Shown piece after piece: positions 40,336 through 44,401 of a DNA stretch of 64,000 nucleotides. The stretch is from contig JAIOZY010000003.1 in assembly GCA_021740385.1 (NCBI GenBank), positions 1 through 64,000 on the forward strand, written 5' to 3'. Positions within the stretch are counted from its first letter, which is position 1, and each line of letters begins with the position of its first letter. The translations under genes were made by a program, and so were the position numbers. Under the pieces are notes generated by a model that was given only the letters and a program-made list of their open reading frames with translations, did no database searches and had not been told where the DNA came from. Source of the DNA: Prolixibacteraceae bacterium (GTDB lineage Bacteria; Bacteroidota; Bacteroidia; Bacteroidales; Prolixibacteraceae).

Positions 40336-41277
40336 TCATTCAAACAACTCAACATCAACGGCAATGTTTTCTCCGTTTTCGTTTTGAGATATCTTGAAAG
40401 ATACGCTGTCACCTTCATTCAAGTCATTAAAGTCTACGCCATTAACAGACTGATAATGAAAAAACAAGTTGTTGCCTGGATATTTGATAAAGCCGTATCC
40501 GTTTTTTAACGACATGATTTCGCTTGTTTTAATACCATTATCATCTCCCTTGCTTTGCCTTTTGTGCAACGATCTTACAACGTTATTGTTTGTCCTTCTT
40601 TCCATTTTTTGCTGAGGCAAAAATAAATTATTAATTGCCGAACTATCTTTGGAAACACGGTTATCTATTTCTTCATGCATTGAAATGGGATAAGTTACAA
40701 CCTCTAAAAGCTCCTGTGATGTTCTGGTAATCCTGTCATTTCCAAAATCATCGGTATAATCAAAATCCCATGATAAAAGCATAACCCGCGTGCCAAGGGT
40801 ATTTAACTTTTTTACAAGTGGAATATAATCTCCATCAGATGCCACTAAAACAAGCACATTAAATCTTTTGTAATAGGCCATTTCAAATGCCTCAAGTGCT
40901 AACCATACATCAATGCCTTTTTCGTGCTTTTTACCGGAATGAGAGGTTCTAACGGGCAAATAATGAGTTGTAATACCCTCTTTCATAAGCACATCATCAA
41001 AAACTCTGTCGTAATACAACGAGTTTGATTTTTCGGCTGCTTCCTGTGCATTTAGCCTTCCTCTAAAATAATGGGAATCAACTATCTGGCATAGTCTGTA
41101 TCCCGATGTTTCACCTTCAAGTTCTGCAACTTTATGCCGTATAAAGTCATGTAAACCCGAAACGCTGATCCTAGATTTTCTTTGATGAACATACGCATAA
41201 TAATTACTCACATGCAAAAAATAATTACCATCGTAAAACACGCCTATCCTGATCAATTTGTTGTTTTCACTAATCAT
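40336..41277 (-). CDS. NYN-domain protein with C-terminal cold-shock domain
   Basis: A 313-residue protein. Residues 5-190 form a NYN/PIN-like nuclease fold: RIGVFYDGNYF with first Asp, KGIDVWLALEA and VLVASDGDYIPLVKKL with further acidic residues. A basic linker follows (residues 215-245). Residues 250-313 resemble a cold-shock domain: NGYGFIKYPGNNLFFHYQSV and LNEGDSVSFKI. The combination suggests an RNA-binding, possibly RNA-cutting enzyme. It is convergent with aroA. A LabA-like NYN protein without CSD would be the usual form. Confidence 0.78.
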   Translation of the reverse strand: MISENNKLIRIGVFYDGNYFLHVSNYYAYVHQRKSRISVSGLHDFIRHKVAELEGETSGYRLCQIVDSHYFRGRLNAQEAAEKSNSLYYDRVFDDVLMKEGITTHYLPVRTSHSGKKHEKGIDVWLALEAFEMAYYKRFNVLVLVASDGDYIPLVKKLNTLGTRVMLLSWDFDYTDDFGNDRITRTSQELLEVVTYPISMHEEIDNRVSKDSSAINNLFLPQQKMERRTNNNVVRSLHKRQSKGDDNGIKTSEIMSLKNGYGFIKYPGNNLFFHYQSVNGVDFNDLNEGDSVSFKISQNENGENIAVDVELFE

Positions 41278-41378: not shown

Positions 41379-42005
41379 TTAAAAAATATAGGCAGAGCGG
41401 GCAACATTATCCCATGTACCTAAACCATGAACCGATCTAGGTCCTATATACATTTTTGCTCTTCCCGCCCAATATCGCTCGGTGAATAAAATTGTTATAG
41501 GGAACACATACATAGAAGAAATATTACAATCTAGAGGAGTTGGGAAAAAAGGTATTGGTATCGGTAGTACCATTGAGAATCCTTGAAAATTGATATTTTC
41601 ATAAACAATAGTAGGAATATAACTTGTTTTAAGATTTTTATTCTCATAGAATTTGTCTCTTTTTTCATTAAGAGACGACAAGTAATTTTTTACCTTTTCT
41701 GAATCGTTTGATTCTTTCCACAATTCCATTTTTTCGACATAAGAAATTTCTTTTTGAAGCTCTAAAATTTTTGTTTTTATATAATCAGTTAACTTACCCG
41801 ATTCTTCTAAATATAATGTAACTTCATCAAAATTTTTACATAAAGTTTCATTCACATCATCAATTACAATGATTTCTTCAATAAAATAACTTTCATTAGT
41901 TCTGTAATCAGGTTTGAGTGCTATTTCATCTGTGTTATTACAACCCAACAGGCAGAATACTATACATAATGTTGCAGCTTTTACAAATAACATAAAATTT
42001 TTCAT
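41379..42005 (-). CDS. Lipoprotein with beta/gamma-crystallin-like C-terminus
   Basis: A 208-residue protein started at the ATG at 42005, directly before the signal peptide with lipobox LLGC (Cys22). Residues 30-120 are Glu/Lys-rich and probably helical. From about residue 130 the sequence looks like a crystallin-type Greek key: VYENINFQGFS, then CNISSMYV, and a second half FTERYWAGRAKMYIG with WDNVARSAYIF. These would be Ca2+-binding or structural. It lies 19 bases after the last of four tandem paralogs on the same strand, so it may belong to that system. Fold call is tentative. Confidence 0.55.
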   Translation of the reverse strand: MKNFMLFVKAATLCIVFCLLGCNNTDEIALKPDYRTNESYFIEEIIVIDDVNETLCKNFDEVTLYLEESGKLTDYIKTKILELQKEISYVEKMELWKESNDSEKVKNYLSSLNEKRDKFYENKNLKTSYIPTIVYENINFQGFSMVLPIPIPFFPTPLDCNISSMYVFPITILFTERYWAGRAKMYIGPRSVHGLGTWDNVARSAYIF

Positions 42006-42024: not shown

Positions 42025-42510
42025 TTAGTAATAAGAACTGATAAGAGATAATGTTCCAATAAGTTCCAATAGGATCAGAAATACAGGAAGCGCTACAGTT
42101 GTTATTAAACAACCTGTTACCGCGCTTTTTACCTGAGCAGGATCGTTGTTAGTAACAAAAGCCACAACAAGGATTCCAAGAGCTGAAAACATGCAACCAT
42201 ACCAGAAAGGGCCAACAATAAGCGGGTTCGAGTCTACTTCCTGGCTCATGGCAATGGCCGATGTTGAACTGACATTTTCAAGCAGTTCGCTGTTCGTGGC
42301 CAGTACTTCGTCATATGTCAGTTCATTATCGGAAATAAAGTTTTCCAGTTTCGAAATTTCTTCAAACGAACTGTATATTTCGTTTTCATCAAAATTGACG
42401 ATGGCCTTATCACCCTGGGTTACTGTAAAATTTGTTCCGGCAAATGCTTGTGGTATTAAAAAGAAAATGGCCATGCTTACAGCCATTGTTTTAAACAGGA
42501 TTTTTTTCAT
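42025..42510 (-). CDS. Tandem C-x27-C exported protein, paralog 4 (last)
   Basis: A 161-residue protein with a signal peptide ending QAFAG. The mature N-terminal half is acidic with the motif FDENEIYSSFEEISKLE. The C-terminal half holds two hydrophobic helices with cysteines at 106 and 134, each after Gly (Y-G-C and T-G-C), exactly 27 residues apart. The same spacing occurs in the three other paralogs. No family is recognised. It is the last paralog on the strand and is followed 19 bases later by the crystallin-like lipoprotein gene, suggesting co-transcription. Confidence 0.75.
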   Translation of the reverse strand: MKKILFKTMAVSMAIFFLIPQAFAGTNFTVTQGDKAIVNFDENEIYSSFEEISKLENFISDNELTYDEVLATNSELLENVSSTSAIAMSQEVDSNPLIVGPFWYGCMFSALGILVVAFVTNNDPAQVKSAVTGCLITTVALPVFLILLELIGTLSLISSYY

Positions 42511-42853
42511 ATTAGTTAAGTTTTAAGTTTGAATTCAATGTAAAGCTAAGTAAAATAATTTAATCATCAAGTAAATATTGTTTTAAAACGGATGTTCGGT
42601 TTAAAAGGGGTTGCTTTGCTGCCAATAACAGATTTTGTTTTATGTGTCATTTCGAACGCATGTGAAAGATCTCAGCGTATTTGAGCATATCTCTCCTAAC
42701 GTCGAGATGACACCTTTTTTTCAACTGTCATCTTCGTATTATACCCAAAAAAATGAGAAGAACCAGCAAGAAAGCGGTATACATAATGTTTTAACACGAA
42801 GATAAAAAAAGATATCATTGTTGTCCGGGGAAATAGAAAAAGAATGGGCAGAT
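42511..42853. other. Intergenic region between paralogs 3 and 4
   Basis: A 343-base stretch without a gene; no degenerate fifth paralog could be read on the minus strand. It contains an inverted repeat at 42644-42713, listed separately. Confidence 0.6.
42644..42713. repeat. Dispersed inverted repeat (GTGTCATTTCGA ... TCGAGATGACAC)
   Basis: Terminal arms of 12 bases pair with one mismatch across a 46-base middle. It resembles short dispersed palindromic elements seen between Bacteroidota genes. It lies between paralog 3 and paralog 4 of the tandem array. Confidence 0.65.
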
Positions 42854-43324
42854 TCACAAGTAAAACCCAAAATACGCGAACATGCAACCATACACACCAA
42901 CAACACTTAAAACGCCAACAATACTGGTTGTTGCGCATCCCCACAACGAACTGTTAAGCGCCGTTGTGTCACCTTCGTTTACCAGGGCAACGGCCAAAAT
43001 GCCCACACCGCCAAACAGGCAACCCATTAGAAAGGATGTTTGTGAATCGAAACGGAATTGCTCAACTGCCCCAACGGCCGAGGATTCATTCGCAATATTA
43101 TCGGTTGAATAACCCGCTTCAATCAAACCGGTATACGTGATGTTTTCGTTTTGCTGAATGTAGGCAAGTTGTTCTTCAATTTCATTGAAAGCACTGTAGA
43201 TTTCGCTTTCATCGAATTCACAGATTATTGTATTATTTTCAGTGTTGTATGAAAAAGTATTAAAGGGAACGATGAAGGAGAAGATAAATACGAAAACAAT
43301 GGGGTATAGAACTACTTGTTTCAT
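42854..43324 (-). CDS. Tandem C-x27-C exported protein, paralog 3
   Basis: A 156-residue protein with signal-like N-terminus (MKQVVLYPIVFVFIFSFIVP). The motif FDESEIYSAFNEIEEQ is at residues 37-52. The conserved cysteines are at 102 and 130, both after Gly. It is the most diverged of the four and has extra cysteines at 35 and 147, so disulfide pairing may differ. A strong hairpin terminator separates it from paralog 2. Function unknown. Confidence 0.72.
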   Translation of the reverse strand: MKQVVLYPIVFVFIFSFIVPFNTFSYNTENNTIICEFDESEIYSAFNEIEEQLAYIQQNENITYTGLIEAGYSTDNIANESSAVGAVEQFRFDSQTSFLMGCLFGGVGILAVALVNEGDTTALNSSLWGCATTSIVGVLSVVGVYGCMFAYFGFYL

Positions 43325-43348
43325 TTTTTTAGTTAAGAAAAGATATAA

Positions 43349-43382
43349 AAAAGGCTGCTGAAAATTTTCCAGCAGCCTTTAA
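43349..43382 (-). terminator. Terminator after paralog 2 of the tandem array
   Basis: AAAGGCTGCTG and CAGCAGCCTTT form a perfect 11-bp stem. On the minus strand a T run follows. It lies seven bases after the paralog 2 stop, so paralogs 1-2 and 3-4 are probably separate transcripts. Confidence 0.85.
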
Positions 43383-43388
43383 ATATTA

Positions 43389-43871
43389 TTACAGATACCA
43401 CCAATAACTTCCAGCTCCAAGTAAACTTAACGTAACGCTGAAAACTACCCAGAAACCGGTGCTGGCAGCACAGCCCCAAACCGATTTCATGATCTGGTCT
43501 TTATCCATATCGGTTGTAAGAGCTACAATGGCTATACCAGCCAAATTCAGGATACAACCCCACCAAAATGCGCTAACAATTGGCGGATCGCCGGCATTTG
43601 CATTGCCCATTGCCAGGGCAGCCGATGAGCTCACGTTTTCAACAAGCGCTTCTTTTTCGGCTTCCACTTCGGCATAGGTTACATCGTTTTCCGAAACGTA
43701 GCTAACCAGTTCCGAAATTTCATCGAACGAGCTGTAAATCTCGTCTTCGTTAAAATTAACAATGGCTTCTTCCTCTTCGTTTATCGAGAAATTGCCCCCG
43801 GCAATGGCCTGGGAAAAAAACATTAATGAGGCCATGGATACGGCCACCGTTTTAAATAAAAATTTTTTCAT
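43389..43871 (-). CDS. Tandem C-x27-C exported protein, paralog 2
   Basis: A 160-residue protein started at the ATG at 43871 (MKKFLFKTVAVSM), not at the upstream ATG of the longer frame. Signal peptide ends QAIAG. The motif FNEDEIYSSFDEISEL matches paralog 4 closely, and cysteines are at 106 and 134 as there (W-G-C each). Between motif and first cysteine lies an acidic, Ser/Ala-rich stretch. The C-terminus is aromatic (SYWWYL). Function unknown. Confidence 0.75.
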   Translation of the reverse strand: MKKFLFKTVAVSMASLMFFSQAIAGGNFSINEEEEAIVNFNEDEIYSSFDEISELVSYVSENDVTYAEVEAEKEALVENVSSSAALAMGNANAGDPPIVSAFWWGCILNLAGIAIVALTTDMDKDQIMKSVWGCAASTGFWVVFSVTLSLLGAGSYWWYL

Positions 43872-43930
43872 GCTAAAAAGGTTTAGATTTGACAAAATAT
43901 TTAAATATTGCTTTTACACACAAATGAATA

Positions 43931-44401
43931 TTAATAGTAGGAATAAGACCATATCCAACCTCCGCCAAGAAGCAGACCGTTAATTAAACAACCCCAACCC
44001 GATTTTACTATTTGACTGCTATCGAAACCGGTGGTTAAACCAACAATGAGCATCCCTACCCAGTTAAGCAGGCAACCCCACATAAAAGCGCTGAAAATGG
44101 GCGGAGTATCTGTCATCGTTGCATTAGAGAAAGCCGAAGTAGCACTTAAATTGGCCACCAACTCGCTGTTGTTGGCCTCAAGCCCGGAATAGGTAATCCC
44201 GTCGTTTCCCCTGATCATTGTTTCCAATTCGCTCACTTCATCGAAAGCCGCGTAAATTTCAGCTTCGCTAAAGCCGGCAACCATTTCTGCTTCTTCTTCA
44301 CTAACCGCCATTGCCGGTGCGGTAGTATACGCCAATGCCTGAACACTGGTGAAAACCAGTGCCAACATTACACTAATTGTTTGCAATAAAATTTTTTTCA
44401 T
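43931..44401 (-). CDS. Tandem C-x27-C exported protein, paralog 1 (first)
   Basis: A 156-residue protein with signal peptide ending QALA. The motif FSEAEIYAAFDEVSELE is at residues 44-60, and cysteines at 110 and 138 both follow W-G. The two hydrophobic C-terminal helices end in a Trp/Tyr-rich tail (GGGWIWSYSYY). It is the first of the array on the minus strand. Nothing in the sequence suggests an enzyme. A membrane-inserting or envelope-stress peptide is possible but unproved. Confidence 0.75.
   Translation of the reverse strand: MKKILLQTISVMLALVFTSVQALAYTTAPAMAVSEEEAEMVAGFSEAEIYAAFDEVSELETMIRGNDGITYSGLEANNSELVANLSATSAFSNATMTDTPPIFSAFMWGCLLNWVGMLIVGLTTGFDSSQIVKSGWGCLINGLLLGGGWIWSYSYY

What the first reader, a model, noticed from the sequence alone, without database searches (positions are those of the whole stretch)
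42025..44401. Four tandem exported paralogs with an invariant C-x27-C pair
All four have a signal peptide, the motif F-x-E-x-E-I-Y-x-(S/A)-F-x-E and two Gly-Cys sites exactly 27 residues apart between hydrophobic helices. They have diverged strongly elsewhere. No known family fits. Tandem expansion with diversification is typical of effectors, bacteriocin-like or immune proteins, or envelope peptides facing varied partners. A disulfide-linked helical hairpin that inserts into membranes is a testable idea.
Basis: partly seen in the sequence, partly recalled or inferred. Interest (0 to 1): 0.82.

Follow-up and report, generated by a model that had tools for sequence, protein, structure and literature searches.

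The report
Envelope hairpin proteins with LolA-YidD machinery
Four neighbouring genes make small exported proteins with a membrane-type helical hairpin, and in related bacteria such genes usually head one conserved gene cluster that looks like an undescribed machine for handling hydrophobic proteins in the cell envelope rather than a set of toxins.

Summary
The four tandem paralogs are real (42025-44401, minus strand): signal-peptide-like start, shared F.E.EIY..F.E motif, and a hairpin with two Gly-Cys sites 27 residues apart. No Pfam or NCBIfam family fits them. The effector/bacteriocin/immunity idea finds no support.

In 71 of 82 non-redundant homologous loci the gene is followed on the same strand by B (LolA fold), then usually D (YidD domain behind a signal-peptide-like start) and two TPR proteins. 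The window's genome keeps this operon intact, about 55 kb away on the same contig.

Exported TM2-domain hairpins fill the same slot in a paralogous cassette. Of 58 B-bearing genomes among 393, 35 have the window's family and the other 23 all have a TM2 match, against 1 of 23 B-less controls.

Best reading: the hairpins are clients or subunits of a periplasmic LolA/YidD-like membrane-protein delivery system. Association is shown; cargo role and target membrane are inferred. The Cys pair is common, not invariant (80 of 104 in register); usually only one Cys is lost, so an obligatory disulfide is unlikely.

The parts
43931..44401 (-). hairpin protein, copy 4 (next to trpS), 156 aa
   Evidence: groups with one copy each from G040, G016 and G022 (SH-aLRT 97)
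43389..43871 (-). hairpin protein, copy 3, 160 aa (ATG at 43871)
   Evidence: AlphaFold model; groups with copy 1 and one copy of G022 (SH-aLRT 96)
42854..43324 (-). hairpin protein, copy 2, 156 aa, the most divergent of the four
   Evidence: groups with one copy of G022 (SH-aLRT 94, not starred; that G022 row has a long branch)
42025..42510 (-). hairpin protein, copy 1, 161 aa
43350..43380 (-). terminator-like hairpin between copies 3 and 2, suggesting that copies 4-3 and 2-1 are separate transcription units
   Evidence: 14-pair stem followed by T-run (number of such sites in the region, 3, is no more than in shuffles, 2.8); the 71-nt stretch folds at -20.5 kcal/mol, z -6.6, 0 of 200 shuffles as good
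41379..42005 (-). lipoprotein-like gene (LLGC lipobox by eye), ATG 19 bases after the stop of copy 1; membership in the system not shown
   Evidence: no Pfam or NCBIfam match at E 1 for the longer TTG form, no PHROGs match; did not recur in the neighbourhoods compared

Best explanation
The four genes belong to a family of small exported helical-hairpin proteins (signal-peptide-like start, acidic helical stalk, two-helix hydrophobic hairpin) that act with a conserved operon of exported proteins: a LolA-fold carrier (B), a YidD-domain protein with a signal-peptide-like start (D), two TPR proteins with DUF5683-like tails (C1, C2) and often one more, weakly TPR-like, protein (E). Shown: gene order, tight spacing, co-occurrence, the LolA fold of a B model, the YidD domain of D, and the presence of exported TM2-domain hairpins in the same slot of a paralogous cassette. 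Inferred: the hairpin proteins are clients or small membrane subunits of this machine; after Sec export the LolA-like protein shields their hydrophobic hairpin, and the exported YidD with the TPR proteins promotes its insertion and assembly in an envelope membrane. In the window's genome array and operon lie about 55 kb apart but both are kept.
For: Loci picked only for the hairpin family: 82 of 94 hold B, 81 D, 79 C, 36 E (redundant set); non-redundant, hairpin gene directly before B on the same strand in 71 of 82 (70 plus L091, seen). Median gaps: hairpin-B 73.5, B-D -44, D-C 2.5, C-C -35, C-E 0.5 bases. Across 393 genomes of the order: both 35, hairpin family only 5, B only 23, neither 330; Fisher odds ratio 100, p 3e-29, kinship not corrected; all 33 genomes with B at E below 1e-30 have the hairpin family. 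The 23 B-only genomes all match an exported-TM2 profile (E at most 1e-15), 19 of them on B's contig within about 3 kb; 1 of 23 B-less controls does. B model (pLDDT 91.8): Foldseek best 3buu, LolA superfamily, E 4e-9; VIA-align 3bk5 Z 16.9, rmsd 2.6, 182 aligned; P. gingivalis LolA3 9tp6 Z 15.8, rmsd 3.1, 186 aligned. D passes the YidD cut-offs in the 4 D proteins scanned. The window's genome has B, D, C1, C2 and a DUF4294 gene at C51:99271-102647.
Against: No experiment. Hairpin genes without B nearby: 11 of 82 non-redundant loci, 3 of them cut by the end of the held sequence within 300 bases; the window's array itself is not next to B. Five of 40 genomes with the family lack B (G102, G106, G119, G206, G298, rechecked), and so does G001, same genus as the window's genome, 86% complete. 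B of G209 is doubtful (E 7e-4, residues 1-57 only). Both hairpin helices are hydrophobic enough (median best-window Kyte-Doolittle 1.97 and 2.0; at or above 1.6 in 90% and 77% of 104) that Sec could simply leave them in the inner membrane, with no carrier needed. Pfam's LolA_like is matched only below its cut-off where that was shown. Whether the TM2 matches in the 23 genomes are all exported was checked by reading only for those fetched; the G198 match is partial.
Confidence: 0.5

Rival explanations
1. The hairpin proteins are fixed inner-membrane anchor subunits of a complex that moves something else: B carries a lipid, lipoprotein or pigment, and the hairpins with C1/C2 form its platform.
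For: Same association data; LolA-fold proteins bind acyl chains (established knowledge), and LolA2/LolB2 genes lie in flexirubin loci (passages of PMC11885536). Hydrophobic helices suit the inner membrane.
Against: Tandem multiplication of the hairpin gene alone (2 or 3 copies in 22 of 82 loci) is easier to explain for a client or repeated subunit than for one fixed anchor; the presence of a YidD domain points to membrane-protein insertion.
Confidence: 0.27
2. The hairpin proteins are pilin-like subunits that assemble into an extracellular or envelope polymer, with B, D and C as assembly factors.
For: Leader plus two hydrophobic helices resembles VirB2-type pilins (recalled); Pfam T4SS_pilin appears at E up to 0.1 in 18 of 57 members, best 0.0024; several paralogs per locus.
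Against: 18.3 bits against a cut-off of 26.6 for the best-scoring protein shown; no type IV secretion gene among the recurrent neighbours.
Confidence: 0.1
3. Secreted toxin, bacteriocin or immunity proteins.
For: Small, exported, hydrophobic hairpin, tandem paralogs.
Against: Association with envelope machinery; paralog subgroups shared across genera; no recurrent immunity-like neighbour besides the operon; no hit for the four in PADLOC or PHROGs, none in phages for copy 3, in plasmids for a homolog or in IMG/VR for two alignments.
Confidence: 0.06

Closest known systems
TM2 domain proteins (PF05154), exported form of Bacteroidota
   Same: Leader, short stalk, two-helix hairpin with spaced Gly; same slot before (or beside) B-D-C-C. 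Profile-profile with leaders P 2e-8; without leaders P 0.0008 (first set) or 0.0027 (larger set), against 0.026 for the best of 14 unrelated control alignments.
   Different: No HRFYLG motif; the four window proteins show no TM2 match at E 1; the leader-free similarity is weak (probability 25% and 11%) and covers 26-70 columns, so homology is not proven.
Lol pathway (LolA/LolB)
   Same: B has the LolA-superfamily fold, close to P. gingivalis LolA3 and LolB in structure, and a leader.
   Different: Sits in an operon with a YidD-domain and TPR proteins and a hairpin gene; sequence below Pfam's LolA_like cut-off where shown. The two LolA papers looked at (passages only) hold no mention of YidD.
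YidD, membrane protein insertion efficiency factor (PF01809, TIGR00278)
   Same: D carries the domain above both cut-offs.
   Different: Longer, with a signal-peptide-like start; the window's genome also has an ordinary short YidD without one, at C45:36025.
VirB2-type pilins (T4SS_pilin, PF18895)
   Same: Leader and two hydrophobic helices; sub-threshold profile matches.
   Different: Below cut-off; acidic stalk between leader and hairpin; no secretion-system genes among recurrent neighbours.

Membership tests
TM2 domain (PF05154) | Profile score above the curated cut-off | tested here: not met
   No TM2 match at E 1 for the four window proteins. Among 57 homologs TM2 is not in the 25 of 49 families shown.
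TM2 domain (PF05154) | G-x-H-R-F-Y-L-G motif in the first helix and turn | tested here: not met
   Absent from the hairpin region of the 104 aligned members as printed; a seven-member clade has G[ST]Y-x-x-Y-G instead.
TM2 domain (PF05154) | Two-helix hairpin in the same cassette position | tested here: met
   Model and neighbourhoods.
LolA superfamily (for B) | LolA/LolB fold | tested here: met
   Model of the L104 B protein: Z 16.9 to 3bk5, 15.8 to LolA3, 15.1 to LolB of P. gingivalis.
LolA superfamily (for B) | Sequence profile above cut-off (Pfam LolA_like) | tested here: not met
   14.0 and 15.3 bits against 30; 6 of 18 members match at E 0.1, best 0.0013, bits not shown.
LolA superfamily (for B) | Carries lipoproteins to LolB | not testable with these tools
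   Needs biochemistry.
YidD (for D) | YidD profile above cut-off | tested here: met
   57.8-66.3 bits against 27 in Pfam for 4 proteins; 62 and 51.6 against 40 in NCBIfam for 2.
YidD (for D) | Acts on the cytoplasmic side, no signal peptide (recalled for E. coli YidD) | tested here: inconclusive
   D has a signal-peptide-like start by eye; location not measured.
Type IV secretion pilin (PF18895) | Profile score above cut-off | tested here: not met
   18.3 bits against 26.6; no match at E 1 for the four window proteins.
Bacteriocin or toxin with immunity gene | Recurrent immunity-like neighbour; toxicity on expression | tested here: inconclusive
   No such neighbour among the recurrent clusters; toxicity not testable here.

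The most novel reading that the evidence does not exclude
A second, protein-carrying Lol-type pathway: a periplasmic LolA-fold carrier and an exported YidD, scaffolded by TPR/DUF5683-like proteins, ferry alpha-helical hairpin proteins across the periplasm and insert them into the outer membrane. It would exist in two paralogous versions, one for TM2-type and one for Gly-Cys-type hairpins.
Probability: 0.25. Interest if true: 0.9.

Novelty: categorically new. Interest (0 to 1): 0.72.

Why it matters
How helical membrane proteins could reach the outer membrane is largely open, and YidD's role is poorly understood even in the inner membrane (both recalled). A cassette in which a LolA-fold carrier and an exported YidD accompany a small hairpin protein, in two parallel versions, turns this into a short list of gene removals and pull-downs. 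It also gives TM2-domain proteins, whose function PMC3861447 (passages) calls unknown, partners that hint at a role.

Tried and rejected
Known family for the hairpin proteins: nothing above cut-off for the four in Pfam and NCBIfam, nothing at E 0.01 in PADLOC and PHROGs. Of 57 homologs, many show sub-0.1 matches to scattered membrane families (49 families, best E 9.6e-5; cut-offs not shown), which I read as membrane-helix composition. PDB by sequence: best E 0.18 for B and 0.71 for the hairpin family. PDB by fold for the hairpin model: Foldseek best E 6.9, VIA best Z 5.5 among only 13 chains; a missing match is no proof of a new fold.

Mobile-element origin: no hit in IMG/VR with alignments A2 and A3, in phages with copy 3, in plasmids with one homolog.

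Remnants of further copies in the window's gaps: best tblastn E 0.014 over 28 residues, taken as chance. Bacteroidota-type -7 motif (recalled) within 250 bases of the five starts: none. Sigma-70-like sites: 18 against 12.8 (sd 3.7) in shuffles, not telling.

Two hits of the phylum sample (L059 E 5.5e-4, L060 E 9.7e-4) were read and set aside: one is a different 270-aa protein, the other another hairpin type. The leader-free FAM-TM2 profile comparison got weaker, not stronger, with more TM2 rows (P 0.0008, 0.0027), and the long-loop clade alone gave only P 0.03. The idea that C1/C2 tails and the hairpin family are related: no profile similarity.

Literature (open-licence papers only; listings unless said): YidD + Bacteroidetes + LolA, 0 papers; TM2 domain/Bacteroidetes/signal peptide/YidD, at least two terms, 15 of 1,132 listed, none of the 15 holding YidD; YidD + membrane protein insertion + periplasm, 12; YidD + YidC, 12 of 29 listed; LolA + Bacteroidota + outer membrane + lipoprotein, 12; DUF5683, 1, on nematode receptors; TM2 domain + Bacteroidota + periplasmic, 0; insertion efficiency factor + Bacteroid + outer membrane, 2; YidD/TM2/tetratricopeptide, at least two terms, 8 of 77 listed. 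No title or abstract start seen describes the cassette; it may be described elsewhere. StlA, a salt-tolerance protein flanked by a TM2 gene (passages of PMC3861447), was considered and left.

Rows dropped: 119 family rows to 104 by identical last 100 residues; 94 loci to 82 by identical ends of the family protein; one TM2 row without its start left out. Context was read for 40 regions, 54 named loci and later L227-L246; not every weak hit was fetched. The three and 98 statistics rest on simple ORF calls (ATG only, overlaps up to 60 bases allowed).

Full report
OBSERVATION. The four ORFs are real and homologous. All share the EIY motif and the two Gly-Cys sites with 27 residues between the cysteines. 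Copy 3 starts at ATG 43871. A stable terminator-like hairpin at 43350-43380 separates copies 4-3 from 2-1. No curated family fits the four.

FAMILY. Profiles from the four, and then from 20 homologs, find the family in 13 of 61 relatives, 40 of 393 genomes of the order and 3 of 395 across the phylum, own genome included each time; the two others were read and set aside. A scan of named genomes gave 54 loci, among them Mariniphaga, Maribellus, Tangfeifania, Emticicia, Cyclobacterium, Marivirga and Jiulongibacter. The window's genome is probably in Prolixibacteraceae; this is inferred, because contigs of the same-family handles G008 and G009 have exactly the lengths of the Mariniphaga sediminis and Tangfeifania contigs. 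In 104 non-redundant members the two Gly before the Cys are kept in 103 and 104, the Cys themselves in 86 and 94; both Cys in register in 80; a Cys in each helix zone in 90. Of the 14 others, 13 keep one Cys and 1 keeps none; least changes on the tree are 1 and 4. Cys thus behaves at least partly like a small packing residue; that is inference.

STRUCTURE. The AlphaFold model of copy 3 (57-row alignment; pLDDT 80, pTM 0.44) is all helical, with the hairpin at 101-119/124-159. No convincing similar solved structure was found.

NEIGHBOURHOOD. In loci chosen only for the family a fixed order follows on the same strand: B, D, C1, C2, often E. Non-redundant, 71 of 82 have a family gene directly upstream of B (70; L091 was missed there because it also holds a family gene on the other strand). 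Of the other 11, three reach the end of the held sequence within 300 bases and one (L078) is the truncated fifth copy of the window's own genome. The window's array is not among the 82 and is not next to B. Genes B to E mostly overlap or nearly touch. B folds like LolA/LolB. D has a YidD domain behind a signal-peptide-like start. C proteins have TPR repeats or similarity to them and a PGxGxxYxG tail; of five scanned, DUF5683 is listed in three and passes its cut-off in one. E is at best weakly TPR-like. The Q-rule for exported Bacteroidetes proteins is known (abstract start of PMC5837995 in the listing); a loose compatible pattern is in 41 of 51 B, 37 of 37 D and 73 of 87 C rows, without a control.

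WINDOW GENOME. The operon lies on the window's own contig, plus strand: B 99271-99942, D up to 100459, C1 in the open frame 100401-101276, C2 up to 102105, then a DUF4294 gene 102102-102647, with no hairpin gene at its head. In G016 and G022 hairpin genes stand between trpS and B-D-C, as trpS stands beside the window's array; so array and operon were probably separated in the window's lineage (inference).

SECOND VERSION. Exported TM2-domain proteins sit at the same place in a paralogous cassette: TM2-B-D-C-C in L227-L231, L240 and L245; with TM2 convergent downstream in L091, L233, L237-L239 and L242-L244. These loci were chosen by TM2 or by B hits. Loci of that set without the full pattern: L232 and L234 (TM2 hits of other types, no cassette), L235 (cassette at a contig end, no TM2 seen), L236 (B alone), L241 (B and D, no TM2). 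The test in genomes: of 58 B-bearing genomes among 393, 35 have the window's family; the other 23 were searched with an exported-TM2 profile and 23 of 23 matched, 19 on B's contig within about 3 kb, against 1 of 23 genomes without B. The controls were the listed B-less genomes, not a random draw; kinship was not corrected; one of the 35 (G209) rests on a doubtful B. Sequence relation of the two hairpin families is suggestive only: the family profile reaches a TM2 protein at E 5e-5 with leaders included, and leader-free comparison gives P 0.0008 or 0.0027.

MECHANISM. Shown: association, order, folds and domains. Inferred: that the hairpin protein is client or subunit, that B shields it, that D helps to insert it, and which membrane. 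Precedent for LolA proteins with other roles: lolA2/lolB2 in a flexirubin operon (passages of PMC11885536) and a LolA3 that pairs only very weakly with LolB (passages of PMC13103446). Against delivery to the outer membrane: both helices are hydrophobic enough to be held in the inner membrane.

AGE OF THE PARALOGS. The window's four fall in a 13-row clade (SH-aLRT 98). Copy 4 groups with one copy each of G040, G016 and G022 (97), copies 3 and 1 with another copy of G022 (96), copy 2 with a third copy of G022 (94, not starred). The set is therefore mostly older than these genera. Only 147 columns support the tree and 36 of 101 inner branches are open.

NOVELTY. The parts have known folds or domains; the system as a whole was not found described in the searches named under Tried and rejected, which cover open-licence papers only. 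Its function is untested.

Noticed in passing
G000:C52:10268-10579 (L027): A fifth copy of the family in the window's genome, without leader and stalk start: probably a truncated remnant.
   Followed up: partly
L028 (G022:C79:6400-6618): A degenerate copy with three stop codons lies between intact copies in G022, so copies in the array are also lost.
   Followed up: no
window 40336-41277 (-): NYN-domain protein with a C-terminal cold-shock domain (Pfam E 6e-15 and 2e-11), next gene but one after the array.
   Followed up: no
L077, L093, L094, L096, L097, L101, L102: A clade of the family with a 13-residue longer first helix or turn (GxYxxYGAVAGP-like) and no helix-1 Cys; it looks part-way to a TM2 hairpin by eye, though profile comparison does not bear this out. 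Three of the seven (L077, L101, L102) have no B nearby.
   Followed up: partly
L227-L231, L240, L245: Exported TM2 proteins end in DNPxFFMW or close to it; the window's family often ends in Tyr, Phe or Leu (70 of 104). A C-terminal signal is conceivable.
   Followed up: no
L090, L091, L244: Parts of both cassette versions lie side by side in one stretch, which suggests that they are used together in some genomes.
   Followed up: no
G000:C51:102102-102647 (L195): A DUF4294 protein (92 bits, cut-off 27) takes the place of E at the end of the window genome's operon.
   Followed up: no
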